The notes under the pieces were generated by a model. It ran no database searches and was not told the DNA's origin. It saw nothing but the letters and a program-made list of their open reading frames with translations. Positions 49,115 through 63,011 of a DNA stretch of 64,000 nt are shown here, piece after piece. Made by a program: the position numbers and the translations under genes. Positions within the stretch are counted from its first letter, which is position 1. Every line of letters starts with the position of its first letter. Source of the stretch: an uncultured Planctomycetaceae bacterium. GTDB lineage: Bacteria > Planctomycetota > Planctomycetia > Pirellulales > Pirellulaceae. The stretch is taken from positions 1 through 64,000 of the forward strand of contig CAIPEB010000336.1 of NCBI GenBank assembly GCA_903863885.1, given 5' to 3'.

Positions 49115-52100
49115 TTACTTCGGTGCTATCCTCGCTTGCAACTGCGAGAGCAGATTCTGTGCATCCGGAGAATCCGGCCCTGCCAGCTCTGCCAGTCGCT
49201 TGGCTCGAGTGACGGCGGCTTGCAGTTCCTCGGGCGTGGCTGATTGTCGGGCGAGCGTGGTGTAGCAGCTGGCGGTTAGTGCGGCCACGAGGTCTTCTTT
49301 TGCGGTGGCGTCTTTTGGCGAGGCCGCGAGCACTTTCTCGAACTGACTCGGCGCTCCCTGGATGGCTTCACGCAGACGATCCGGATTGCCGGCCTTCTCG
49401 AAAATCGCAAGCGCTTTGATGTAGCTGACGCCGAGGTCGCGCTGCGCTCGCATGTTGTTCGGATCGCTTGTCGCGTTTTGGCGGGCGAGTTCGATCGATT
49501 CCTCGATGGAGGCCGCTGCGTTGGCGGTTTCCTCGAGTTGCATCTGGATTCCCGCCGTCTTGTTCAGCAGCACCGATAGGCTGCGTTTCACTTCTGCGTC
49601 CGCCGGGTCTTGCTGAGTCAGTCGCCGACCGATATCGAGCGCCTCTCGGTAGTTTGACAGGGCTTTCTGAGGCGATCCCATTGCGAGCAGCGCGTTGCCG
49701 ACTTTCGTCGCGCCAACGAGAAGGTCGAACTGGATGGAAGCACTGTTCGGGTCTTTTTCCGCCATTCGGCGGCTTTTGGCCAGGCCCGACTCGTAGAGAC
49801 GGAAGGCTTCATCCGGCTTGTTCATTTCCATCGCCAGATCCGCGAGGCGGTCGTTGGAAATGGAAAGATCGCGCTGCAATTGAGTATTTTCGGGGTCCTT
49901 TGCGGCCAGCGACTCGCTGATTTTCAACGCTTCGCGGTAGGCGTCCAGTGCCGCGTCCTTGCGGCCAAGTTTGAGGTAGGCGCTGCCGAGTTTGTCCCAG
50001 CCGACCGACATGTCGCGCAGGGACTCCTCGCTGCCGGGACGTTTGGCCACGTTCTGCCTGCCCATTTCCATGCCACGCTCGTATGCGGCGAGGGCCTCTT
50101 CGGTCTGCCCCAGCTGCATCCGCAAGTCGCCGATCCGCTCGAGGCACAGCGACAGGTCGCGAGCCGCCGTTTCGTCATCAGGATCTTCCTTGACCAGTTC
50201 CTCGGCGATGGACAAGGCCTCCTCGTAAGCATTTCGTGCATCGTCCGTCCTGCCGAGACGAAGGTAGACGCCGCCCAGGCGGTCGAGCCCCAACCACAGA
50301 TCGCGGCGGTTGCCTCGATCGCTGGGGGCTCGCTTGGCCATCTCGCGCGTCATATCCATGCTTGTCTGGAAAGACCGCAGGGCTTCCGCGACCTTGCCCT
50401 TTGCCAGCTGGACGCTGCCGATTCGATCGTGTGCGATCGACACATCGTGCTGGTAGACGATCTCGTTCGGGTTCTCGCTCGCCAGCTGCCTGGCGATCTT
50501 CAGCCCCTCGGCAAAGGAGGCCGATGCCCGGTCGGTATCTCCGATCAGCATCCATCGATCGCCGATGGACATGAAATTCACGCCCCGTTCGCGTTGTGCC
50601 AGGGGCGTGTTCGGTTCGATCGCGAGAATCCGGTCGATCAGTTTGAGGTTCTCTTCGAGCATTTGCCTAAGGATCGGCAGGGTGCCGGGCACTTCGCGCA
50701 GTCGCAGCGGCACATCGTGCGTCAGGCGGCTGATCGCGTCCAGGGCGAGCCGCTTCTGCGCAAGCGCCAGATCGCGTTGTCGGGCAGCTTCCCGCCACTG
50801 GTAGATTGCGATCCCGCCGGCCACGAGCAGAATTGCGACCATGCCCGCGGCCAGCATTGCCGCGCGCCGGAAACGGTGAGCTTTGATCCGCTGTGCCTGA
50901 TGTGCCTTTTCCAGTCGCCGCTGCTCGAGTCGCTGGTCATGACTTCGAAGGGCCTGGGCCAATTCGGCGGCGCGCGGCCAGCGTTCCTGCGGCGACTGAC
51001 AGATGCAGCGCCGGATGTCGTCACGCAGCACGTCGCTGGAAATCTGCTGTTCCCAGTCGGCCGTCAGCGGACGTTCCACGTCCCCGACGGTGATCTGATA
51101 AAGCGTCATGCCGAGGCTGAAGATGTCGCTCTGTGCGGAAGCGATTCCGCCATGCCGCAATTCGGGCGCGAGATAGTCCCACGTGCCGGAAAGACCTTTG
51201 ATTCTCGATGTGTAAATGCTTTTTAGCAGATCCGGATCCTCGGCAGCGCCGAGCCCGAAATCGCCGAGCTTCGCACGGAGTTCGCCGTCTTCGCGGCGCG
51301 TGAGGAGAATGTTCGGCGGCTTGATGTCGCGATGGAAAATGCCGGCAGCGTGCACGGTGTCCAATGCGTCGGCCACCTGCGCGATCGCTTCGAGCCGCTG
51401 GCCGAGCGGCGGGTCTTCCTTGAGCCACTCGTGCAGCGGCGGGCCGTCGACGAACTCCATCTCGAGATAATGGGGCGGACGCTCGCCTTCCGTGACGTCG
51501 TAGACTTCCACGAGGCTTGGATGCGCATACTTGCGCAGCCGCTTCAGCAGTCGTGCTTCGCGTTTCAGGGCCGGCAGTCGGTCCCTTTTGAAACAGAACT
51601 TGAAAACCTGGTAGGATTTGTCGCTGAGGTTGAACGCTTTCCAGACCTCGCCGAATTCGCCCTCGCCGAGCTTGGCCGTCAGTTGCCAGTTCGTTTCGGG
51701 AACCGTGATGCCCGCGGCGGGCCGCCATCCCGGTTCCTCGAGCGTGCGCTCGGCCGGCCAGCCCTTCAGGCTGGCCTTGGGCGGAGTCAGCGGTGCAAGG
51801 CCGTCCTCGCCCACCTCGCACACTTCGTGGTCGTCCTCGACCCCTTTGAACCGATAATGCCCGTGATTGCGCCAGGCCAGTCGGGCGAACCCGTCAAAGT
51901 CCTCCTGCCGCAGAATAGCCCGGGCGTCGTCGAACACGGAGCGGCTCAGCAGTACCTGGCCGGCTTCGGCGAGGTCCATGATGCGGGCGGCCGTGGAGAC
52001 CTGGAGGCCGTAGATATCCACCACGGTCGCTCCGCCGCGGTCTTTTTCCAGCACCACCTGCCCCTGATGCACGCCCGCCCGCATCGGCGGAAGGTGACGC

Positions 52101-52468
52101 TCGGTCCTGGCGTGCTCCCGCATCGAACGTTGGGCTACCAGGGCGAATTTCACCGCCTCCGACGGCGCTGCGAATACGATCAGCATCGAGTCGCCGGCCG
52201 TCTTGATCTCGCGTCCATCGAAGGACCGCAGCGCGTCCCGCACGATTCGGTAGTGCCGGTAGACCAGTTCGGTGGCGACCAGATTGCCTTGCTCGGTCTG
52301 CAGCCTGGTCGAGCCGACAAGGTCGCTGAAGAAGATCGTCAGCACCTGGGTTTCGTGTGTCCGGCGAAATTGCTCCAGTTCGGCTCGCTCGTCCTCGGAC
52401 AGCGGCACGAGACGGTCCGTCGAGTCTTCCGGTCCAGTGGCGTCTGAGAGGTTGGACGCGTTCTGCAT
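49115..52468 (-). CDS. Class III cyclase / serine-threonine kinase / TPR fusion, 1117 aa
   Basis: Residues about 40-215 form a class III nucleotide cyclase domain: FFSDLVGST (metal D49), IKTAGDS (K89 and D93), D151 and VSTAAR. The usual transition-state Asn (in VNxAAR) is Ser158, while R162 is kept. Residues about 262-510 are a Hanks-type kinase with GEGEFGEVW (268-276), HRDIKPPN (D381), DFG (403-405) and APE. K290 in VFKF is the likely ATP-binding lysine. One membrane helix (539-557) follows, then about 13 TPR-like repeats to the end. Kinase and cyclase are predicted cytoplasmic and the TPRs outside, so the protein may couple an envelope signal to phosphorylation and/or cyclic nucleotide level. 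Confidence 0.9.
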   Translation of the reverse strand: MQNASNLSDATGPEDSTDRLVPLSEDERAELEQFRRTHETQVLTIFFSDLVGSTRLQTEQGNLVATELVYRHYRIVRDALRSFDGREIKTAGDSMLIVFAAPSEAVKFALVAQRSMREHARTERHLPPMRAGVHQGQVVLEKDRGGATVVDIYGLQVSTAARIMDLAEAGQVLLSRSVFDDARAILRQEDFDGFARLAWRNHGHYRFKGVEDDHEVCEVGEDGLAPLTPPKASLKGWPAERTLEEPGWRPAAGITVPETNWQLTAKLGEGEFGEVWKAFNLSDKSYQVFKFCFKRDRLPALKREARLLKRLRKYAHPSLVEVYDVTEGERPPHYLEMEFVDGPPLHEWLKEDPPLGQRLEAIAQVADALDTVHAAGIFHRDIKPPNILLTRREDGELRAKLGDFGLGAAEDPDLLKSIYTSRIKGLSGTWDYLAPELRHGGIASAQSDIFSLGMTLYQITVGDVERPLTADWEQQISSDVLRDDIRRCICQSPQERWPRAAELAQALRSHDQRLEQRRLEKAHQAQRIKAHRFRRAAMLAAGMVAILLVAGGIAIYQWREAARQRDLALAQKRLALDAISRLTHDVPLRLREVPGTLPILRQMLEENLKLIDRILAIEPNTPLAQRERGVNFMSIGDRWMLIGDTDRASASFAEGLKIARQLASENPNEIVYQHDVSIAHDRIGSVQLAKGKVAEALRSFQTSMDMTREMAKRAPSDRGNRRDLWLGLDRLGGVYLRLGRTDDARNAYEEALSIAEELVKEDPDDETAARDLSLCLERIGDLRMQLGQTEEALAAYERGMEMGRQNVAKRPGSEESLRDMSVGWDKLGSAYLKLGRKDAALDAYREALKISESLAAKDPENTQLQRDLSISNDRLADLAMEMNKPDEAFRLYESGLAKSRRMAEKDPNSASIQFDLLVGATKVGNALLAMGSPQKALSNYREALDIGRRLTQQDPADAEVKRSLSVLLNKTAGIQMQLEETANAAASIEESIELARQNATSDPNNMRAQRDLGVSYIKALAIFEKAGNPDRLREAIQGAPSQFEKVLAASPKDATAKEDLVAALTASCYTTLARQSATPEELQAAVTRAKRLAELAGPDSPDAQNLLSQLQARIAPK

Positions 52469-52739: not shown

Positions 52740-55700
52740 TTGCCAATCGAGGCTGATGAGGTGCCGAGCGGACAAGGCACGCCGTCCCGATATGCTCTGC
52801 TGGAAATCTGCGGGCGGGGAGGATTCGGCGCGGTCTGGCGGGCCTTCGATTCAAAGCTGGGCCGGGAAATCGCGGTCAAGTGTCTCGGCGAACGGCTCGC
52901 CGGGGATCCCGAAGCCCGCCGGCGGTTCGTCGAGGAAGCCAGGCTCACCTCCCGGCTTGAACACCCGGGCATCGTGCCCGTCTACGACCTGCTCGAATCG
53001 TCGGGCGACGAGGCTCCGCGATATGCCATGAAGCTCGTTCGGGGCGAGACTCTGTCCGCTGCGATCGAGCGGTTTCATCAGCGGCCGCCGGCGAGCGACG
53101 AGCGACTGCAGCTGCTCGGCCTGTTGAATGTGTTTGTCGCCGTGGCGCGGACAATGGAATTCTCGCACTCGCGCGGCGTGCTCCATCGGGACCTGAAGCC
53201 CCAGAACATCATCGTCGGCGAGTTTGGCGAGACGATCATTCTCGACTGGGGATTGGCCAAGGATCGCAACGATTCCCGCTCCGAAGAGCCCGCATCGCCG
53301 GCCGGGTTCGGCGAGTCGCCGGCTGTCACCCAGCCGGGGACCGTTCAGGGAACGCCCGCTTACATGGCTCCCGAACAGGCGTCCGGGCGGGTTGAAGACG
53401 TGGACGAGCGGACGGATGTTTACGGGCTGGGGGTGATACTGTACGAGTTGCTGACCGGCCGTCTTCCTTTTTGCGGCGATACGGCGGAAGACGTTCGGCA
53501 GCGAGTGCTCGATGAGCACGTTGTGCGGCCGCGCAGCTTGAACCGCCACATCGCGCCTCAACTCGAAGCCATCTGCATGAAGGCCATGTCCAAGTCGCCG
53601 GCGGAACGATACCAGACCGTCCGCGAGTTGCGCGAAGATATCGAATGCGTTCTGGCGGATGAGCCTGTCAAGGCCTGCCGCGAATCCTATCGCGAGCGGT
53701 TGGCGAGATGGACCCGCAGGCATCGAACGCTGACCGGATCCATTGCAGCTTCGCTGGCTGCGGCCTGTCTGGTGCTGATCGTCGCGGTGGCGATCATCTC
53801 AGATTCCCGCGGTCGCGAAACAGCAGCCCGCCAGGATGCAGACCGGCAGCGCGACGAAGCTCGCAGGCAGGCCCGGTTGGCGGCCGAGCGTTTGGACCAT
53901 GTGGTGCACGAAACGTACAACATGGAACTCCTGCGAGTCCGCGATCTCTGGGCAAGCGAACCGGCAAAGGCTCTCGCGGCTCTCGATAACCCGCAGCGCT
54001 GCCCCGATTCGCTGCGTGACTTCGCGTGGGGTTATTTTCACCGAATGGCCCGGAGGCAACGCTGGCTGCAGAAGGTCGGAAGCGGTTTTCTGTCTGCTGT
54101 GGCCCTTGCTCCGGACGGCCAATTGATTGCGACGGGAGGCGAAGATCATGTCGTGCGGTTGCTGGATGCGGCGACGGGAAAAGTGCAGCGAGAACTGGCC
54201 GGCCATGATGGCTGGGTGACGGATCTGGCGTTCTCTCCCGATGGAAGCATGCTCGTCTCGGCAGGGGCCGACCGAACCGTTCGAATCTGGTCCATTCCCG
54301 CAGGCCGGACCATTCGCACCATTGCGGCTCACGAGTCGCACGTCAACGCCGTTGCGATTTCGCGCGACGCAGTGAGGATCGTGTCGGGCGGTTCGGACGG
54401 CAAGATCAAGAGTTGGTCGCTGGCCAATGGCGAGCTGCTGAAGGAGTCGCAGGTTCAGGACGGCGAAGTGGCGGACCTCTGCTTTGTCGGAGACTCCGTC
54501 GCGTCAGCCTCTGAGGACGGCCTCGTCCGATTATGGGACCGCGAGCTTTCCAACCCCAGGACGCTCTCCGGGCACGAGGCTCCCGTCGACGCAGTGCTTG
54601 CCCTGAATGAAGACCGCGAAGTCGCTTCCGCCGACCAGAACGGAGTTATTATTGTGTGGAATGCGGCCGATGGGAGCAGGCGGCTGCGGTTGTCCGGCCA
54701 TGCGGACCGGGTCCAGTCGCTGGCCTGTGCGTCCACGCGGCACTGGCTGGTTTCCGCGAGTTGGGACAAGACGGTCCGAGTCTGGGATCTGGATGCGGGA
54801 CAAATGAAGGTCACCTTCGAGGGGCCGGGAAGCTCGGCGCTGGCCACGGCATGTTCTCCCGACGGTGAATGCCTTGTTTCCGCTGACAGGGACGGCCGCC
54901 TCACCGCTTGGATCGTTGTGCCTGATGCGTGCGTTTCCACGCTGCGGGATGAACCGAAGCCCCTTGCGGTGGCGTTTGTGCCCGATAATCGAGCCGCGCC
55001 CGGCAGGAGACGGCTGATTGTGGCGGGCGGAGATCCTCTGTTCGAAAAGCCGGGCGGATATCTGCACGTTTGGGGTTTAGATAAAGCGGAAAGGGCGGAC
55101 ACGTTCGGCGGAGTGTCCGGAACGGTGACGTCGGTCTCTGCTGCGCCGTCGCGGCGCTGGTTTGCTTCGGGCGGCAGTGATCGCTGGGTACGTATCTGGG
55201 ACCTCGATTCGGGTCGCGAATTGCGGCGAATGGGCCCGCATGCGGGTTATGTCTGGTCGGTCGTTTTTTCCCCGGACGGCCGCAGGCTGGTTTCCGCGGG
55301 CGGCGACAAGCGGATTTGCGTGTGGGATGCCGAGACCGGGGAACTGCTGCAACAGTTGGATGGGCACGGCGCGGCGGTATCGCACCTGGCATTTGACGCG
55401 GGTGGCCGGCGATTGGCTTCGAGCGACTGGGATCGCACGGTAATTGTGTGGTCGGTTGCCGAAGGCCGCGAAGTGTGGCGGACCTCGGGCAAGTCCAAGG
55501 GATCGTCGCTGCTTGCGTTTTCGGCGGAGGGGAACCTGATCGCTACGCTCAGCGACAGTACATTCGCCGTGTGGCGTTTGCCCGGCGAGCGACCGATCTT
55601 CGAATTCACCGGTCGCGGCCCACGGGTCAACGCGATGTGCATGTCTCCCGATTTTCGCAGTCTGGCCTCGGCGGATGACAAGGGAGCGGTATGCATCTGG

Positions 55701-55907
55701 GACCCGGACCGCGGGCAGCAGCGTGCCGTGTTTCAGGCCGGCGACCGGCCGATTCTCGCGCTCGCTTTTTCGCCCGATAGCCGCCAACTGGCCTCTGCCG
55801 ATTCGGACGGAACGGTAAGAATATGGTTGTCGGAAAACACGTCGCCCCAGCAACCCGTCGGGAAAGGAACTCCGGTTTCGAGCGAGTCTTTCAAACAAAG
55901 ACCATAG
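52740..55907 (+). CDS. Serine/threonine kinase with 14 WD-like repeats, 1055 aa
   Basis: The start is TTG with AGGAGG eight bases upstream. The kinase (about 18-310) shows GRGGFGAVW, AVK (K47), HRDLKPQN (D151) and DWG (169-171) instead of DFG, then GTPAYMAPEQ. A membrane helix lies at 331-353, followed by a short charged helix and a WD40-rich region (about 445-1045). Fourteen WD-like units can be counted by their terminal phrases (for example VRIW, VRLWD, ICVWD), enough for two seven-blade propellers; unit eight is degenerate. The kinase would be cytoplasmic with the propellers outside. It is divergent from the cyclase-kinase gene across 271 bases. Confidence 0.9.
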   Translation: MPIEADEVPSGQGTPSRYALLEICGRGGFGAVWRAFDSKLGREIAVKCLGERLAGDPEARRRFVEEARLTSRLEHPGIVPVYDLLESSGDEAPRYAMKLVRGETLSAAIERFHQRPPASDERLQLLGLLNVFVAVARTMEFSHSRGVLHRDLKPQNIIVGEFGETIILDWGLAKDRNDSRSEEPASPAGFGESPAVTQPGTVQGTPAYMAPEQASGRVEDVDERTDVYGLGVILYELLTGRLPFCGDTAEDVRQRVLDEHVVRPRSLNRHIAPQLEAICMKAMSKSPAERYQTVRELREDIECVLADEPVKACRESYRERLARWTRRHRTLTGSIAASLAAACLVLIVAVAIISDSRGRETAARQDADRQRDEARRQARLAAERLDHVVHETYNMELLRVRDLWASEPAKALAALDNPQRCPDSLRDFAWGYFHRMARRQRWLQKVGSGFLSAVALAPDGQLIATGGEDHVVRLLDAATGKVQRELAGHDGWVTDLAFSPDGSMLVSAGADRTVRIWSIPAGRTIRTIAAHESHVNAVAISRDAVRIVSGGSDGKIKSWSLANGELLKESQVQDGEVADLCFVGDSVASASEDGLVRLWDRELSNPRTLSGHEAPVDAVLALNEDREVASADQNGVIIVWNAADGSRRLRLSGHADRVQSLACASTRHWLVSASWDKTVRVWDLDAGQMKVTFEGPGSSALATACSPDGECLVSADRDGRLTAWIVVPDACVSTLRDEPKPLAVAFVPDNRAAPGRRRLIVAGGDPLFEKPGGYLHVWGLDKAERADTFGGVSGTVTSVSAAPSRRWFASGGSDRWVRIWDLDSGRELRRMGPHAGYVWSVVFSPDGRRLVSAGGDKRICVWDAETGELLQQLDGHGAAVSHLAFDAGGRRLASSDWDRTVIVWSVAEGREVWRTSGKSKGSSLLAFSAEGNLIATLSDSTFAVWRLPGERPIFEFTGRGPRVNAMCMSPDFRSLASADDKGAVCIWDPDRGQQRAVFQAGDRPILALAFSPDSRQLASADSDGTVRIWLSENTSPQQPVGKGTPVSSESFKQRP

Positions 55908-56764: not shown

Positions 56765-58018
56765 GTGATCAAGAAACTGGCCGTTTTCATCGTGGGATTG
56801 GCCGTGGGTATCGGAGCGGCGGTCTCGTACCAGTTGCAGTTTGGGCCTCTGACGGCACGCCCCGGCGCTGCGGCACCGGTTTCGGCCGGCGCGCAGCCCG
56901 CCGGTCCGGTTGCGGGTCCTGCGACCGCCGGCGGCAGTTCGGTGGTGGTGGCGTTGGGAACGATTGAACCGAAAGGCGGGATCATCAATGTGGCCAGTCC
57001 GCTCATCGGACATCGCATCGAAAAGATCAACGTCGCGGAAGGCGGACCGGCCAATATGAACGAAGTGGTCGTCGAACTGGACAAGTCGCTCGACCAGAAA
57101 GAAATGCAGCTGGTCGATATCCAGCTTGAAGAAGCGAAAGTTCGCCAGGCGGCGGAGGTGGAGCGGGCCCAGCAGGGGCTTGATGCGGCGGCTCGCGCTC
57201 TGCAGATCCTGCAGGGAAGCCGCGAACTGGATATTGCGGTCCAGGACGCCAAGCAGAAAGTGCTGGCGGCCAAAGCCAAGCAGGCTGCCACGGACCTCGC
57301 GCGGTTGCGGCAGTTGCGTCAGCTGTCCGATCCGCCGGTTTCGGACCAGCAGGTGGAACAGCAGGCGGTGCTGGTGGAAGTTGCACAAGCCGAGCAGCAG
57401 GCGGGCGACGTGGGCGTAAAGAAGCTGAAGCAATCGCTCGATTTCCAGATCACCAATGCGGAGGCTGAACAGAAGGCCGCCAAACGGATGCTGGATCTGG
57501 CCACCACCGGAGCGGGAATTCGTTCACTGGAAATGCAGAAGGAACTGACCGGCCTGAAATTGAAACAGTCCACCATTACCGCTCCGATCACGGGCACGGT
57601 GTTGAGCGTCCCGGCCCACGCCGGCGAGGTCGTGACCCAGTCGCCTCTGTTGCGGATGGCCGACCTGACGGAGATCGTGTGCAAAGTCGAGGTCGATGCG
57701 ACGGATGTGCAGCGACTTGCATTGGGCGAAACGGCCAAGGTCGCATGCCGCGCCTTCAGCGGGCCATTTCCGGAAACCACAGTGTCTGGCACGATCGAGC
57801 GGTTCGGCAGCGTGGTTGCCCAGGCGACCGTCCAGCCGCTGGATCCCCGCAAACCTGTGGACCGCCATGTGGTCGAAGTGATCGTGTCGCTCAGCGCGGA
57901 AGACGTGCTCAAGCGGATCTACGGCACGAAAACGCCCGATGCCACGGCGCTGGTGGGCCTCCAGGTCGAGGCGAGGTTTGACGAAAAGTCCAGCGGGGAC
58001 AAGCCATCATCGCCATGA
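56765..58018 (+). CDS. HlyD/DevB-type periplasmic adaptor of an ABC exporter, 417 aa
   Basis: The start is GTG. An N-terminal membrane anchor (LAVFIVGLAVGIGAAVSYQL) is followed by a biotinyl-lipoyl-like half, long coiled-coil helices (about 115-270, Gln/Ala/Lys-rich), the second lipoyl half (SPLLRMADLTEIVCKVEVDA) and a beta-barrel. This is the membrane-fusion layout that bridges inner-membrane permeases to a TolC-like channel. The next gene (permease) overlaps it by four bases, so the complex is made as one unit. Substrate unknown. Confidence 0.9.
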   Translation: MIKKLAVFIVGLAVGIGAAVSYQLQFGPLTARPGAAAPVSAGAQPAGPVAGPATAGGSSVVVALGTIEPKGGIINVASPLIGHRIEKINVAEGGPANMNEVVVELDKSLDQKEMQLVDIQLEEAKVRQAAEVERAQQGLDAAARALQILQGSRELDIAVQDAKQKVLAAKAKQAATDLARLRQLRQLSDPPVSDQQVEQQAVLVEVAQAEQQAGDVGVKKLKQSLDFQITNAEAEQKAAKRMLDLATTGAGIRSLEMQKELTGLKLKQSTITAPITGTVLSVPAHAGEVVTQSPLLRMADLTEIVCKVEVDATDVQRLALGETAKVACRAFSGPFPETTVSGTIERFGSVVAQATVQPLDPRKPVDRHVVEVIVSLSAEDVLKRIYGTKTPDATALVGLQVEARFDEKSSGDKPSSP

Positions 58019-59172
58019 AGACACCGCTTGCCTGGCTGAACTTGATCCATAATCGGGTGCGCACGGCCGTGGCCGTGTCGGGCGTGGCGTTCGCCATTGT
58101 CCTGATGTTCATGCAATTGGGCTTCCTCGAAGCAGTCAAGGCGAGTGCGACCCTGATCTACAAGGGGCTGGATTTCGATATCTGCATCCGGTCGCCCGAC
58201 TACTTGAATATGGCCGATGCACGCACATTTCCCGGCAGTCGGCTGCTGCAGGCGAAAGGCACGGAGGGTGTGGCCCGCGGGGCTGCTTTTCAGACTTCCG
58301 TGGCGCCGTGGCGAAATCCGACCAGCGGCGAGAAACGGGGCATCCTCGTCATGGGGATCGGAACGGCGGACGACGTGTTTCTCGATCCGCAGCTGAACCG
58401 CACGGTGCGTCAGTCGCTCAAAGCACCCGAGGATGTGCTGATCGACACGAAGACTTCGCTCGAGTTCGGTCCTCGCAACGGCAGTTGGCTTGACGATGCG
58501 AACGTCGGCCTGCAGACCGAGATCGGCGGCAGCAGGATACGCGTGGCGGGGCACTTCACTCGGGGTGCGGGGCTCATTGCAAGCGGCGCCGTGCTGATAA
58601 ACGACCGCGGCTTTCGTGATGTGGTGACTATTCACCCGCCGGAACAGGTCAGTTTCGGGTTCCTCAAGCTCAAGGCCGGCGCCCGCCCCGACGAGGTTGC
58701 CGCCCGCATGCGCAAGTCGCTGCCCGACGACGTGGAGGTGCTGACTCGCGCCGAGACGTTAACGCGTGAAACCAGACGCTGGGTCTGGGAAACGAACTAC
58801 GGCTTGATCTTCTTCGCCGGCGTGGTTGTGGCCGTGATCGTCGGCACGGCGATTGTGTACCAGGTTCTCGTCAGCGAAGTGACGTCGCTGCTGCCCGAGT
58901 ATGCGACGATGCGCGCCATGGGGTATCGCGACCGGTACCTGGCCGGCATCGTGCTGCAGCAGGCGCTCGCCCTGGCGCTGGGAGGGTTCGTCCCGGGTCT
59001 GGTTCTTTCACAGATCATGTACCGCATTACGTCGTCCCGCGCAGGCATCCCCGTCGAATTCACGTGGTTTAATTTCTTCCTCGTCCTCGGCCTGTCGATT
59101 GTCATGTGCATGGTGTCGGGCCTCCTCGCGATGCGCAAAACGTTTCTGGCCGATCCCGCGGACCTGTTCTGA
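58015..59172 (+). CDS. DevC-like ABC exporter permease 1, 385 aa
   Basis: The FtsX/MacB-type permease layout is present: an N-terminal helix (VAVSGVAFAIVLMFMQLGFL), a periplasmic domain of about 200 residues, and three C-terminal helices (LIFFAGVVVAVIVGTAIVYQ, then LQQALALALGGFVPGLVLS and FNFFLVLGLSIVMCMVSGLL). The segment EYATMRAMGYRDRYL before the second-last helices is the usual cytoplasmic coupling loop. Its ATG overlaps the adaptor's stop (ATGA) and it is one base from the next permease. Confidence 0.9.
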   Translation: MKTPLAWLNLIHNRVRTAVAVSGVAFAIVLMFMQLGFLEAVKASATLIYKGLDFDICIRSPDYLNMADARTFPGSRLLQAKGTEGVARGAAFQTSVAPWRNPTSGEKRGILVMGIGTADDVFLDPQLNRTVRQSLKAPEDVLIDTKTSLEFGPRNGSWLDDANVGLQTEIGGSRIRVAGHFTRGAGLIASGAVLINDRGFRDVVTIHPPEQVSFGFLKLKAGARPDEVAARMRKSLPDDVEVLTRAETLTRETRRWVWETNYGLIFFAGVVVAVIVGTAIVYQVLVSEVTSLLPEYATMRAMGYRDRYLAGIVLQQALALALGGFVPGLVLSQIMYRITSSRAGIPVEFTWFNFFLVLGLSIVMCMVSGLLAMRKTFLADPADLF

Positions 59173-59173
59173 C

Positions 59174-60355
59174 ATGCTGCGAAAAACTCCACTGGCTTGG
59201 AAAAACCTGACGCACGAGCCCCGGCGCATGATGATTGCCGTCGGAGGAGTGGGGTTTGCCGTGCTGTTGATGTTCATCGAAATGGGATTCCTCAATGCGC
59301 TGCTCGACAGCACCGTGGAGGTGCTTCGAGTGATGCGAGGCGAACTGGTCATCGTCAGCCAGACGAAGTTCGCCATGGCGGCCCGCGAGCGATTCGACCT
59401 GCAGCGGGCATACCAGGCGCAGGCAATTCCCGGCGTGGAGGGCGTCTATCCGGTCTATATGGAGACGATGGGGGCGATTCTGCGCCGCCGCGATGCCACG
59501 CCCCCGCCCCGCGGCTATCCGATCCGCGTGTTCGGCTTCCGGCCGGGGGATCCCCTGTGGAAGATCCCCGCGGTCGCCGAGCGGTTGAGCGAACTGCGGC
59601 AACCGGGCGTCGCGCTGCTCGACGAAGCCAGCCGGCGACAGTACGGACTTTCGCGGCGCGGTTCGCAGCTCGCGAAGCAGGACGTGGAACTGACGGGCCG
59701 CCGTCTGCGTTTTGCGGGGACGTTCTATCTCGGCGTCGATTTCACGAACGATGGAAATCTGATCATGACCGCCGAGAATTTTGCGCACTACTTTCCCTAC
59801 CGCCTCCGCGGATCCAATCCTCTCAACGTCGTCGATCTGGCCCTCGTCAAACTCCAGCCCGGCGCGGATCCTCTCGCAGTGCAGCGGCAGCTGATCGAAC
59901 GGCTGCCGGACGATGTTCGCGTCGAGACCAAAGAGAAGTTCATCGAAAGCGAAAAGAAATTCTGGCGCAAGAGTACGCCGATCGGCTACATCTTTTTTGT
60001 CGGGACGGTGGTAGGGTTCGTCGTCGGCGTGATCATCTGCTACCAGATCATCTATGCGGATATCTCGGATCATATGCGGGAGTTCGCCACCATGAAGGCG
60101 ATGGGTTACCGCACAACGTACTTTTTCCAGCTGGTCCTCACCCAGGCCGCGTGTCTCTCCGTGTTTGGTTTTGTTCCCGGGTGCCTTGCCGCAGCGGGTG
60201 TCTATTGGCTGATCGCCAGCATTACCGGCCTGACGATGGAGATGAAACTGGCCACGACCGTCGAGATTCTCGCGGCTACCCTGTGCATGTGCTCGATATC
60301 CGGTCTGCTGGCGGTGCGGAAGCTGCTGTCGGCCGACCCGGCGGAATTGTTCTGA
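59174..60355 (+). CDS. DevC-like ABC exporter permease 2, 393 aa
   Basis: A paralog of the preceding permease with the same layout: N-terminal helix (MMIAVGGVGFAVLLMFIEMG), a periplasmic domain, three C-terminal helices and the coupling loop EFATMKAMGYRTTYF. The start MLRKTPLAWKNL at 59174 mirrors the first permease's MKTPLAWLNL, and the longer open frame upstream lies inside the first permease gene. Two distinct permeases suggest a heterodimeric membrane unit rather than a homodimer. Confidence 0.9.
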   Translation: MLRKTPLAWKNLTHEPRRMMIAVGGVGFAVLLMFIEMGFLNALLDSTVEVLRVMRGELVIVSQTKFAMAARERFDLQRAYQAQAIPGVEGVYPVYMETMGAILRRRDATPPPRGYPIRVFGFRPGDPLWKIPAVAERLSELRQPGVALLDEASRRQYGLSRRGSQLAKQDVELTGRRLRFAGTFYLGVDFTNDGNLIMTAENFAHYFPYRLRGSNPLNVVDLALVKLQPGADPLAVQRQLIERLPDDVRVETKEKFIESEKKFWRKSTPIGYIFFVGTVVGFVVGVIICYQIIYADISDHMREFATMKAMGYRTTYFFQLVLTQAACLSVFGFVPGCLAAAGVYWLIASITGLTMEMKLATTVEILAATLCMCSISGLLAVRKLLSADPAELF

Positions 60356-60392: not shown

Positions 60393-61544
60393 ATGGGAAC
60401 TGAACCGAACATCCGAGCGACAAGTTCCACGATGTGGGTGCGCACCAGCGCTCCCCGCTCTCGCACGATTCGCATCCGCGACGTGCAGCACTATTTCGGC
60501 GAGGGAGAAGCTCGCAAGCAGGCGCTGTTCAACAATAACCTCGACGTCTACGAGGGCGAGATCGTCATCATGACCGGACCGTCCGGCTCCGGGAAAACGA
60601 CCTTGCTGACGCTGATCGGGACGCTGCGCACCGTGCAGGAAGGAAGCCTCCGCGTGCTGGGCAGGGAACTGGCCGGAGCCTCGCGCGACGAACTGGTTGC
60701 GACCCGGCGCGACATCGGGTTCATCTTTCAGGCCCATAATCTCTTTGGCTCGCTGACCGCGATGCAGAACGTAAAGATGGGAATGGAGCTGTTTGATTTC
60801 AGCCCGAAGGAGATGAAAGACCGCGCAACCACGCTGCTCGAACGGCTCGACCTGGGCAAACGACTTAATTACAAGCCGGAGTCGCTGTCGGGCGGCCAGA
60901 AGCAGCGGGTCGCCATCGCCCGCGGACTTGCGCACGGTCCCCGCATCGTCCTGGCCGACGAACCGACCGCCGCGCTCGACGAAAAGACCGGGCGCACGGT
61001 GGTCACGCTCTTTCAGGAACTCGCGCAGCAGCAGGGTGTGACGATTGTCATGGTGACCCACGACAGTCGAATCCTGGATGTGGCCGATCGCATCGTTAAT
61101 ATGGTGGATGGCGAAATCAGGTCCGACGTGGTCGTGCAGGAGGCCGCATTGATCTGCGAGTTCCTGCAGAAACTCCGCGCTTTCGAGAAACTCACTCCCG
61201 CCACGCTTGCGTCCATTGCCGATAAGATGCAGGCCGAGCAGCACTCCGCCGGCGATGTCATCACCCGGCAGGGCGAGCCGGGCGACAAGTTCTATTTGAT
61301 TCGCTCAGGCGAAGTGGACGTAGTCATCGATGACGGCACGCGGAAGCGACTCGTCGCGCGATTGAAGGACGGCGATTTCTTCGGCGAAACCGCGCTGCTG
61401 ACCGGCGAACCCCGCAATGCCACGATCACCGCCACCAAACTCTCGCTGCTCTACTCGCTCGGCAAGGAAGACTTCCAGGCGGCGATTTCCGCGAGCGCGT
61501 CGCTGAGGGAAGAACTGCAGAAAGTGCTGTTTGAGCGGCAATAG
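60393..61544 (+). CDS. DevA-like ABC ATPase fused to a cyclic-nucleotide-binding domain, 383 aa
   Basis: The ATPase half shows Walker A GPSGSGKT (62-69), a Q-loop phrase FQAHNLFG, signature LSGGQ (165-169), Walker B IVLADEP (D189/E190) and H-loop H223. It belongs to the LolD/MacB/DevA class that powers export with the upstream permeases. Residues about 265-380 form a Crp-like cyclic-nucleotide-binding domain with [18 protein letters not shown]; the phosphate-contact Glu332 and Arg341 of the phosphate-binding cassette are kept. The natural start is the ATG at 60393. The fusion suggests exporter activity could be gated by cyclic nucleotide. This is inferred from domains only. Confidence 0.92.
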
Positions 61545-61664: not shown

Positions 61665-63011
61665 TCATTCTGACGAATCGTCGTCCGACAGGCTTTCGTG
61701 CGACACTTCTTCGCCTGCGGGTTCTTTGTCCGGCAGTTCTTTGTCCGACGGTTCGTCTCCGGAAGGGGCGACGGTGGGCTCCTGCGAAATTCCGTAGCCG
61801 TATTCCGCGGCGAGCTGCCCCTGGACTTCTCGCAGCCGCACGACCGCGATCTTCCACTTCACGACGTCGTGGAACAGCTGCTGCTGCTTGCGGATCAGGT
61901 CCAGGCGGCCCTGTCGCACATCGATGGTCGTTGATGCTCCGATGGCACGCTGCTGGTGCAGATTCTCCACCCGCTGTTCCTGGGACTTCACCTGCTCGCG
62001 GCTGTTGACGACCTGCCTCAGCGAACTCTCAATTTCTGCCACGGCCTCGCGCACGTCGCGAGTCACGGATTGCCGGCGGTAGGACAGCAGTTCGTCCAAC
62101 TGGCCGCGGCGATGATCGGATTCGCCCGTGTCGGTGTGGCCCGCGAAATGTCCGACGGCAGCCGCCAAGGTCACGCCCAGACCGCCCGAAAGGCCGCCCA
62201 GCGCCTCGCGAATTGCGGGCAATGTCTGCGGGTTCACGGCGGATCGCAGATACTCGAGCATAGCGAGATCGGCCCGAGTAGCCAGCGCGGTTGCGACTTC
62301 CGCATCGACCTCCAACGGAGCCGTATCGACCTTCAAATCGACTTCAGGCCAGATGTGCCGCGTCTCCGCAGCGTCCATGGAAAGCAGTTCCGCCAGTTTT
62401 CCGTTCAGATTCCGCGAGGCGGCCTGCGTCTCTTCCATCTGATGCTGAAGTGCCAGACGCTGCTGGTCGATTTCGGTCTGTGTCACGGGGACCGCCAGGC
62501 CTTTGGAACGCACTTGATTCAAGTCGTTGCCCATGCCCTCGACTTCAGCCAGGCTCTCCTTGATTCGAACCAGACCATCCTCGGCTTCGGCCAAAAGCAG
62601 GAAGGACTCCAATGCATCGCCCGCCGAGCGATTTCGCTCCATTACCGACTGAGCGAACAGCATCGACCGGAGGATTTCCACTGAACACGGATTCACTCCC
62701 CGCTGAAGCCCTTGGGCTGCTACTGCATCGCTTTCCCGAGCAAGAAGATTGCCGGTGAGCGACCGAGTCGCGGCGATCTGCTGCGCGTCGCTTTCGCTCA
62801 GTTTGCAGAAGCCGGCATCTTCCTCGGTGGAAGACGCGGTTGCCTCGGTGACGTCCACCACCAGCGCCGGCCGCTGGTTGTCTGAGTCCGAGAGGTAAAC
62901 GGGGGGAAGCTGTCCAGCAGGCGCCGGCGCGGTCCGCGTATAGCCACTGTGCGCGCAGCCTGACAGCATGAGCAGCAGGCCGGCCAACAGTCTTCGAGGC
63001 GCGCGACGCAT
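61665..63011 (-). CDS. TolC-like outer-membrane efflux lipoprotein, 448 aa
   Basis: The N-terminus has a lipobox (LMLSGC, C19) after a short basic and hydrophobic leader, so it is a lipoprotein. Long helices with Glu/Gln/Leu periodicity (about 110-225 and 315-415) flank a beta-prone segment, the two-repeat layout of TolC-type outer-membrane factors; conservation is weaker than in classical TolC. The C-terminal tail is Asp/Glu/Ser-rich. It converges on the DevBCA-like exporter genes with a 120-base gap, so it is the likely outer-membrane exit for that pump. AAAGG lies about eight bases before the ATG. Confidence 0.82.
   Translation of the reverse strand: MRRAPRRLLAGLLLMLSGCAHSGYTRTAPAPAGQLPPVYLSDSDNQRPALVVDVTEATASSTEEDAGFCKLSESDAQQIAATRSLTGNLLARESDAVAAQGLQRGVNPCSVEILRSMLFAQSVMERNRSAGDALESFLLLAEAEDGLVRIKESLAEVEGMGNDLNQVRSKGLAVPVTQTEIDQQRLALQHQMEETQAASRNLNGKLAELLSMDAAETRHIWPEVDLKVDTAPLEVDAEVATALATRADLAMLEYLRSAVNPQTLPAIREALGGLSGGLGVTLAAAVGHFAGHTDTGESDHRRGQLDELLSYRRQSVTRDVREAVAEIESSLRQVVNSREQVKSQEQRVENLHQQRAIGASTTIDVRQGRLDLIRKQQQLFHDVVKWKIAVVRLREVQGQLAAEYGYGISQEPTVAPSGDEPSDKELPDKEPAGEEVSHESLSDDDSSE

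What the first reader, a model, noticed from the sequence alone, without database searches (positions are those of the whole stretch)
60393..61544. ABC exporter ATPase fused to a cyclic-nucleotide-binding domain
Seen: intact ATPase motifs and a Crp-like domain with Glu332 and Arg341 in its phosphate cassette. Inference: a direct small-molecule gate on export, unusual for DevA-type ATPases.
Basis: partly seen in the sequence, partly recalled or inferred. Interest (0 to 1): 0.6.

Follow-up and report, generated by a model that had tools for sequence, protein, structure and literature searches.

The report
Lipid-type exporter ATPase with cyclic-nucleotide sensor
The motor protein of a bacterial cell-envelope export pump carries a built-in cyclic-nucleotide sensor domain; the same fusion, with an intact sensor pocket, recurs in many Planctomycetota and Verrucomicrobiota, so the pump is probably switched by a second messenger such as cAMP or cGMP, although no binding has been measured.

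Summary
ORF 60393-61544 (383 aa) is a DevA-family ABC ATPase (TIGR02982, 339 bits) followed by a cyclic-nucleotide-binding (CNB) domain (PF00027, 81.6 bits), with Glu332 and Arg341 in the phosphate cassette. It is the last gene of devB-devC-devC-devA; a TolC-like lipoprotein gene lies convergent downstream.

It is not a one-off. About 85 distinct fusions were collected, mostly Planctomycetota and Opitutales. In all of them the cassette's Phe-Gly-Glu, Arg and Ala are invariant, while the CNB domain averages 44% identity. A Pro-Arg-Asn-Ala signature is near-fixed, and the ATPase-CNB linker has the same length in 87 of 88. The domain folds like cAMP/cGMP-bound PKA, PKG and MlotiK1 domains. HetC-like cyanobacterial exporters, the nearest precedent, have lost both Glu and Arg.

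Best explanation: a MacB/DevBCA-type tripartite envelope exporter, probably of lipid-like cargo, whose ATPase is modulated by a cyclic mononucleotide. Ligand, sign of the effect and cargo are inferred. In Opitutales the operon sits against a conserved sphingolipid-like synthesis cluster. A class III cyclase-kinase gene lies 8 kb away in the window, but cyclases occur near only a few relatives.

Verdict: real, conserved, a new variant of a known kind.

The parts
60393..61544 (+). [quoted passage not shown]
   Evidence: full-length homologs
60468..61118 (+). ATPase domain (aa 26-242), all catalytic motifs intact
   Evidence: TIGR02982 339.3 bits; model matches MacB 5lj6 Z 32.3 over 226 residues
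61116..61184 (+). ATPase-CNB junction (aa 242-264), 23 residues in 87 of 88 sequences
61161..61541 (+). CNB domain (aa 257-383), no helix-turn-helix after it
   Evidence: PF00027 81.6 bits; model pLDDT 91.9; Euglena PKA-R 6rsx Z 21.6, 1.1 A over 127 residues
61380..61427 (+). phosphate-binding cassette (aa 330-345) [16 protein letters not shown] with Glu332, Arg341 and the family-typical Asn342
56765..58018 (+). DevB-type membrane fusion (adaptor) protein
   Evidence: TIGR02971 171.6 bits, cutoff 129
58015..59172 (+). DevC-type FtsX-fold permease 1
   Evidence: TIGR01185 288.9 bits (cutoff 290.35), PF02687
59174..60355 (+). DevC-type FtsX-fold permease 2
   Evidence: TIGR01185 311.7 bits, above cutoff
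61665..63011 (-). candidate outer-membrane partner: TolC-like lipoprotein gene, convergent, conserved beside 29 fusion loci
   Evidence: PF02321 21.5 bits (cutoff 22), TIGR01844 32 bits (below cutoff); neighbourhood cluster
49115..52468 (-). candidate (unproven) source of ligand: class III cyclase domain (aa 39-180) + Ser/Thr kinase + TPR; both metal Asp, the Lys/Asp pair and the Arg kept, catalytic Asn replaced by Ser
   Evidence: alignment

Best explanation
A DevBCA/MacB-type tripartite exporter with an on-board second-messenger sensor. Two DevA-CNB ATPases power a pair of FtsX-type permeases (DevC1/DevC2) by mechanotransmission; DevB and a TolC-like channel complete the conduit across the envelope. 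A cyclic mononucleotide (cAMP or cGMP most likely, cUMP/cCMP possible) enters the CNB beta-barrel, Glu332 holding the ribose 2'-OH and Arg341 the cyclic phosphate. Movement of the C-terminal helices is passed through the fixed-length linker to the ATPase, so envelope export follows the messenger level. The cargo is probably an envelope lipid or similar amphiphile. SHOWN by computation: architecture, operon, family-wide cassette invariance, constant linker, folds, co-inheritance of the two domains. INFERRED: the ligand, that it changes ATPase activity, the sign of the effect, dimeric assembly, and the cargo.
For: Domain assignments above curated cutoffs. Six of the eight invariant CNB columns lie in the 16-residue cassette (6/16 against 2/110, Fisher p = 4e-5), against 44% mean CNB identity. 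The cassette is degenerate in most other CNB domains sampled from the same group of genomes and in HetC-like exporters, so its retention here is selective. ATPase-CNB linker identical in length in 87 of 88, and ATPase and CNB distances correlate (Mantel r 0.72, 0/999 permutations): one long-maintained unit. Model of the CNB alone (pLDDT 91.9) matches cAMP- or cGMP-bound domains: 5j3u Z 20.9, PKA RI-alpha 5kjx Z 20.7, PKG 4qxk Z 20.5, MlotiK1 3cl1 Z 19.5 at 39% identity. All 18 fusion-bearing relatives encode class III cyclases. Operon devB-devC-devC-devA retained, collinear in 41 and divergent in 23 of 71 loci. Lipid cargo: DevBCA exports heterocyst glycolipids (PMC5985334, PMC8277102); in Opitutales the operon is convergent with PAP2, GNAT and ketosynthase-ACP-oxoamine synthase genes.
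Against: No ligand has been measured. Class III cyclases are nearly universal in this order (55 of 60 genomes), so co-occurrence does not discriminate. Cyclases lie close to only about five fusion loci. Asn342 sits where PKA has Ala and PKG/HCN have Thr or Ser (own knowledge), so specificity may be unusual. HetC's CNB domain binds ppGpp, not cAMP (PMC10986499). The lipid-synthesis linkage is seen in Opitutales only. The tools gave no inter-domain error matrix or coordinates, so the CNB position relative to the ATPase dimer is unknown.
Confidence: 0.58

Rival explanations
1. The CNB domain senses a nucleotide other than a cyclic mononucleotide, for example ppGpp, as reported for the CNB domain of the exporter HetC; export would then follow starvation.
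For: HetC, the only exporter with a tested CNB domain found here, binds ppGpp (Kd 59 uM) and not cAMP or cCMP, and needs the domain in vivo (PMC10986499). Asn342 is atypical for known cAMP/cGMP sites.
Against: HetC-like cyanobacterial exporters with N-terminal CNB have lost Glu (to Trp, Val or Ser) and Arg (to Cys), whereas both are invariant in the DevA-CNB family. The solved relatives matched best hold cAMP or cGMP.
Confidence: 0.17
2. The CNB domain is a structural or assembly module (dimerisation, docking to a kinase or other partner) and no ligand is bound; the cassette is kept for folding.
For: Many CNB folds act without ligand (own knowledge); no ligand data exist for this family.
Against: In other planctomycete CNB proteins the cassette is free to degenerate while the fold stays, so folding alone does not demand Glu and Arg; invariance in about 85 sequences at 44% identity points to ligand contact.
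Confidence: 0.15
3. The ligand is a cyclic pyrimidine (cUMP or cCMP) made by a class III cyclase, so the exporter answers a stress or phage-defence type signal.
For: The CNB domain of PycTIR bound to cUMP (8jsk) is among the matches, Z 19.6.
Against: It ranks with many cAMP/cGMP domains and is not the best; no defence genes were seen beside the fusion loci, though no defence-library search was run.
Confidence: 0.07
4. Chance read-through or assembly artefact joining a DevA gene to an unrelated CNB gene.
For: None found in any call.
Against: Full-length fusions in many independent genomes, complete isolate genomes included, with constant linker.
Confidence: 0.01

Closest known systems
DevBCA-TolC/HgdD glycolipid exporter of Anabaena (MacB-type tripartite pump)
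   Same: DevA, DevB and DevC family membership and gene order; FtsX-type permease; TolC-like gene nearby; in cyanobacteria also often two tandem devC
   Different: cyanobacterial DevA ends at about residue 250 with no CNB domain; cargo here unknown
MacAB-TolC and LolCDE (mechanotransmission ABC systems)
   Same: ATPase fold: MacB Z 32.3, LolD Z 31.2
   Different: no C-terminal sensor domain on the ATPase; MacB ATPase is fused to its permease
HetC, cyanobacterial peptidase-containing ABC exporter with CNB domain (PMC10986499)
   Same: an ABC exporter polypeptide carrying a CNB domain
   Different: CNB at the N-terminus, C39 peptidase, own transmembrane domain; HetC-like cassettes degenerate; binds ppGpp
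MetNI, ModBC, MalFGK2: ATPases with C-terminal regulatory domains (own knowledge)
   Same: same logic: a ligand-responsive C-terminal domain on the ATPase tunes transport
   Different: importers with ACT-like, molbindin or OB domains; no CNB
MlotiK1, SthK and HCN channels; PKA/PKG regulatory domains
   Same: CNB fold and cassette; C-terminal CNB domain coupled to a membrane transporter in the channels
   Different: gates ion channels or kinases, not an ABC ATPase

Membership tests
DevA subfamily of ABC ATPases (TIGR02982) | HMM score above curated cutoff | tested here: met
   339.3 against 295.8 bits
DevA subfamily of ABC ATPases (TIGR02982) | operon with devB and devC | tested here: met
   DevB 171.6 bits above cutoff; DevC 311.7 above and 288.9 marginally below cutoff 290.35
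DevA subfamily of ABC ATPases (TIGR02982) | intact ATPase motifs | tested here: met
   invariant or nearly so in homologs
DevBCA-TolC tripartite exporter | outer-membrane TolC-type partner | tested here: inconclusive
   window gene just below OEP cutoff (21.5 against 22) but conserved in 29 loci; clear OEP 86-98 bits in L072 and L083 operons
DevBCA-TolC tripartite exporter | exports glycolipid | not testable with these tools
   needs biochemistry or lipidomics
Cyclic-nucleotide-binding domain (PF00027) with functional cassette | HMM above gathering score | tested here: met
   81.6 against 27.5 bits
Cyclic-nucleotide-binding domain (PF00027) with functional cassette | ribose-binding Glu and phosphate-binding Arg nine residues apart | tested here: met
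   E332, R341; 87/87 homologs
Cyclic-nucleotide-binding domain (PF00027) with functional cassette | CNB fold | tested here: met
   model pLDDT 91.9, Z up to 21.6
Cyclic-nucleotide-binding domain (PF00027) with functional cassette | binds a cyclic nucleotide | not testable with these tools
   needs ITC, DSF or FP assay
Crp/Fnr transcription factors | C-terminal helix-turn-helix DNA-binding domain | tested here: not met
   protein ends at the C-helix of the CNB domain, no HTH match
HetC-type peptidase-containing ABC exporters | C39 peptidase and N-terminal CNB on an exporter with its own transmembrane domain | tested here: not met
   no peptidase or transmembrane domain match in the 383-aa protein; CNB is C-terminal

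The most novel reading that the evidence does not exclude
A previously undescribed class of second-messenger-gated envelope exporters: MacB/DevBCA-type pumps whose ATPase reads cyclic-nucleotide level through its own CNB domain and so times the export of sphingolipid- or glycolipid-like envelope material in Planctomycetota and Verrucomicrobiota, in some genomes with the cyclase encoded next door.
Probability: 0.3. Interest if true: 0.72.

Novelty: new variant of a known kind. Interest (0 to 1): 0.5.

Why it matters
If the gate is real, it is a direct, post-translational link from cyclic-nucleotide signalling to envelope export by a mechanotransmission ABC machine. Two large reviews of these pumps (PMC5985334, PMC8277102) contain no mention of cyclic nucleotides in the text held. 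It would give planctomycete class III cyclases, which are nearly universal in this order, a concrete target. The conserved pairing with a lipid-synthesis cluster in Opitutales makes cargo and control testable in one locus.

Tried and rejected
Genome-wide cyclase presence as a discriminator: 55 of 60 related genomes have a class III cyclase, fused or not, so it is uninformative. Cyclase next door as a general rule: rejected. Only the window, L038/L121 (same genome), L040, L030 and L094 have one within about 8 kb; against about 0.3 expected this is an excess (rough Poisson p about 2e-5), but L030 and L040 are close relatives and the density is an order-wide average, so it is only suggestive. Upstream Ser/Thr kinase-WD40 gene and 246-aa gene as operon partners: not conserved beside other fusions. 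Ketosynthase-oxoamine-synthase homologs in planctomycetes: present in 56 of 60 genomes regardless of the fusion, with matches to the ketosynthase or the oxoamine-synthase part alone, so the sphingolipid link is not extended to the window organism. Single origin of the fusion: not excluded, not proven; the ATPase tree needs 2 changes, starred branches force 1, and L094 is unstable. Structure search with the full-length model was filled by ATPases, so the CNB was modelled alone. Literature search for a DevA- or MacB-CNB fusion found none (on CNB evolution also empty), but the library holds open-licence papers only.

Full report
WHAT IS THERE. ORF 60393-61544 (+) encodes 383 aa. Residues 26-242 are a DevA-family ABC ATPase (TIGR02982, 339.3 bits, cutoff 295.8) with complete Walker A, Q-loop, signature, Walker B/catalytic Glu and switch His. 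The gene ends an operon of DevB adaptor (56765-58018), two DevC permeases (58015-59172, 59174-60355) and DevA-CNB. Convergent with it is a TolC-like lipoprotein gene (61665-63011), weak by HMM (21.5 bits, cutoff 22) but conserved beside 29 fusion loci.

IS IT A ONE-OFF? No. Among 60 genomes of the same family and order, 17 carry the full fusion and one more a fusion cut by a contig end. In a collection-wide scan 71 of the best 80 loci are fusions (a few cut by contig ends): mainly Planctomycetota, also Opitutaceae and other Verrucomicrobiota, and single MAGs labelled Gammaproteobacteria, Deltaproteobacteria and Syntrophaceae; the other nine are cyanobacterial DevA that end near residue 250. 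Even draws show it is rare at phylum scale: 3 of 294 Planctomycetota genomes with full-length fusions, 5 of 240 from the Verrucomicrobiota draw, 1 of 274 Gammaproteobacteria; the last two counts include or may include the genomes that prompted them. The ATPase tree clusters fused forms strongly (2 label changes against 20 in shuffles) but does not settle one or more origins.

IS THE CASSETTE KEPT? In 87 aligned homologs (three pairs are the same genome reached twice) F330, G331, E332, L335, R341 and A343 are invariant; Asn342 is present in 79, otherwise Lys, Ala, Ser or Thr. The collection scan used a peptide seed that includes the cassette Glu, so it could be biased; the 17 sequences found by whole-genome search all keep Glu and Arg as well. 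Mean identity is 65% for the ATPase and 44% for the CNB domain; 6 of 16 cassette columns but only 2 of 110 other CNB columns are invariant (Fisher p = 4e-5). The junction between the domains (aa 242-264) has 23 residues in 87 of 88 sequences, and ATPase and CNB distances correlate (Mantel r 0.72, 0 of 999). Other CNB proteins sampled from these genomes mostly lack the cassette, and none of them has Pro-Arg-Asn-Ala.

STRUCTURE. AlphaFold2 from 60 family members gives pLDDT 88.6, pTM 0.81; the ATPase matches MacB (Z 32.3), MJ0796, YbbA and LolD. The CNB domain alone (pLDDT 91.9) matches PKA regulatory subunits (Euglena 6rsx Z 21.6; RI-alpha with cAMP 5kjx Z 20.7), PKG with cGMP (4qxk Z 20.5) and MlotiK1 (3cl1 Z 19.5, 39% identity). 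A cUMP-bound PycTIR domain also matches (8jsk Z 19.6). Relative placement of the domains could not be read out.

PRECEDENT AND CONTRAST. HetC of Nostoc is an ABC exporter with an N-terminal CNB domain that binds ppGpp (Kd 59 uM), not cAMP, and needs the domain in vivo (PMC10986499). In four HetC-like cyanobacterial exporters examined here the cassette reads FGWVGLVRGVPCETV, VGWIGLVRGVPCETV, LGVISLIRDVPCETA and MGSLSLIRNVACETV: Glu and Arg both gone. HetC itself was not aligned. The contrast makes a HetC-like ppGpp site less likely in DevA-CNB but does not exclude it.

SOURCE OF LIGAND. The organism has three class III cyclase domains. One is in the window: 49115-52468 (-), cyclase + Ser/Thr kinase + TPR, about 8 kb from the fusion. 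It keeps both metal Asp, the Lys/Asp pair and the Arg, but has Ser for the catalytic Asn (alignment), so its activity is uncertain. Nearby cyclases were also found at L038/L121 (FHA-GAF-type cyclase protein by inspection), L040, L030 and L094 (response regulator-cyclase). That is more than chance by a rough count (about 0.3 expected) but covers few loci and partly related genomes; it is a lead, not a rule.

CARGO. DevBCA exports heterocyst glycolipids with TolC/HgdD (PMC5985334, PMC8277102, PMC6161253). In Opitutales the full operon TolC-DevB-DevC-DevC-DevA-CNB is convergent with a PAP2 enzyme resembling phosphoinositol dihydroceramide synthase (157.9 bits, below cutoff 480), a GNAT acyltransferase and a 1305-aa ketosynthase-ACP-dehydratase-oxoamine synthase (serine-palmitoyltransferase-like) protein. 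This arrangement recurs in most Opitutales loci examined, including genomes drawn independently. That supports a sphingolipid-like cargo there. The planctomycete loci lack this linkage, and the enzyme's presence elsewhere in planctomycete genomes does not track the fusion, so for the window the cargo is an extrapolation.

CONCLUSION. The gate is the best-supported explanation (0.58) but remains an inference until binding and ATPase assays are done. Nothing found in the held literature describes it; as a kind it is a known exporter plus a known sensor in a new combination.

Noticed in passing
L072:9114-13031 (-), with L070, L076, L078, L080, L082, L086, L207-L209: Opitutales encode a single ketosynthase-ACP-dehydratase-alpha-oxoamine synthase protein (1305 aa) next to a GNAT and a PAP2 ceramide-phosphoinositol-synthase-like gene, convergent with the DevBCCA-CNB-TolC operon: a candidate polyketide-type sphingolipid pathway.
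   Followed up: partly
window 49115-52468 (-): Class III cyclase domain fused to a Ser/Thr kinase domain and TPR repeats (1117 aa), with the catalytic Asn replaced by Ser; weak similarity to TIGR04510 and TOMM kinase/cyclase models.
   Followed up: partly
L055:453-4358 and L083:3299-7077: Two non-planctomycete loci have OEP-DevB-DevA-CNB with no recognisable DevC between or beside them, so the permease must be elsewhere or of another type.
   Followed up: no
L094:7088-9250 (-): Next to the gammaproteobacterial fusion lie a PhoB-like regulator and a response regulator-class III cyclase, suggesting a two-component route to the exporter's possible ligand.
   Followed up: partly
L191, L194, L197, L198: HetC-like cyanobacterial C39 exporters share a degenerate CNB cassette with Pro-Cys-Glu-Thr (or Ala-Cys-Glu-Thr) where Pro-Arg-x-Ala is expected: possibly a signature of a non-cyclic-nucleotide site such as ppGpp.
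   Followed up: no
window 52740-55907 (+): Ser/Thr kinase fused to WD40 propellers (1055 aa), 10 bases upstream of a 246-aa protein without Pfam match, both just before devB; neither is conserved beside other fusions.
   Followed up: partly
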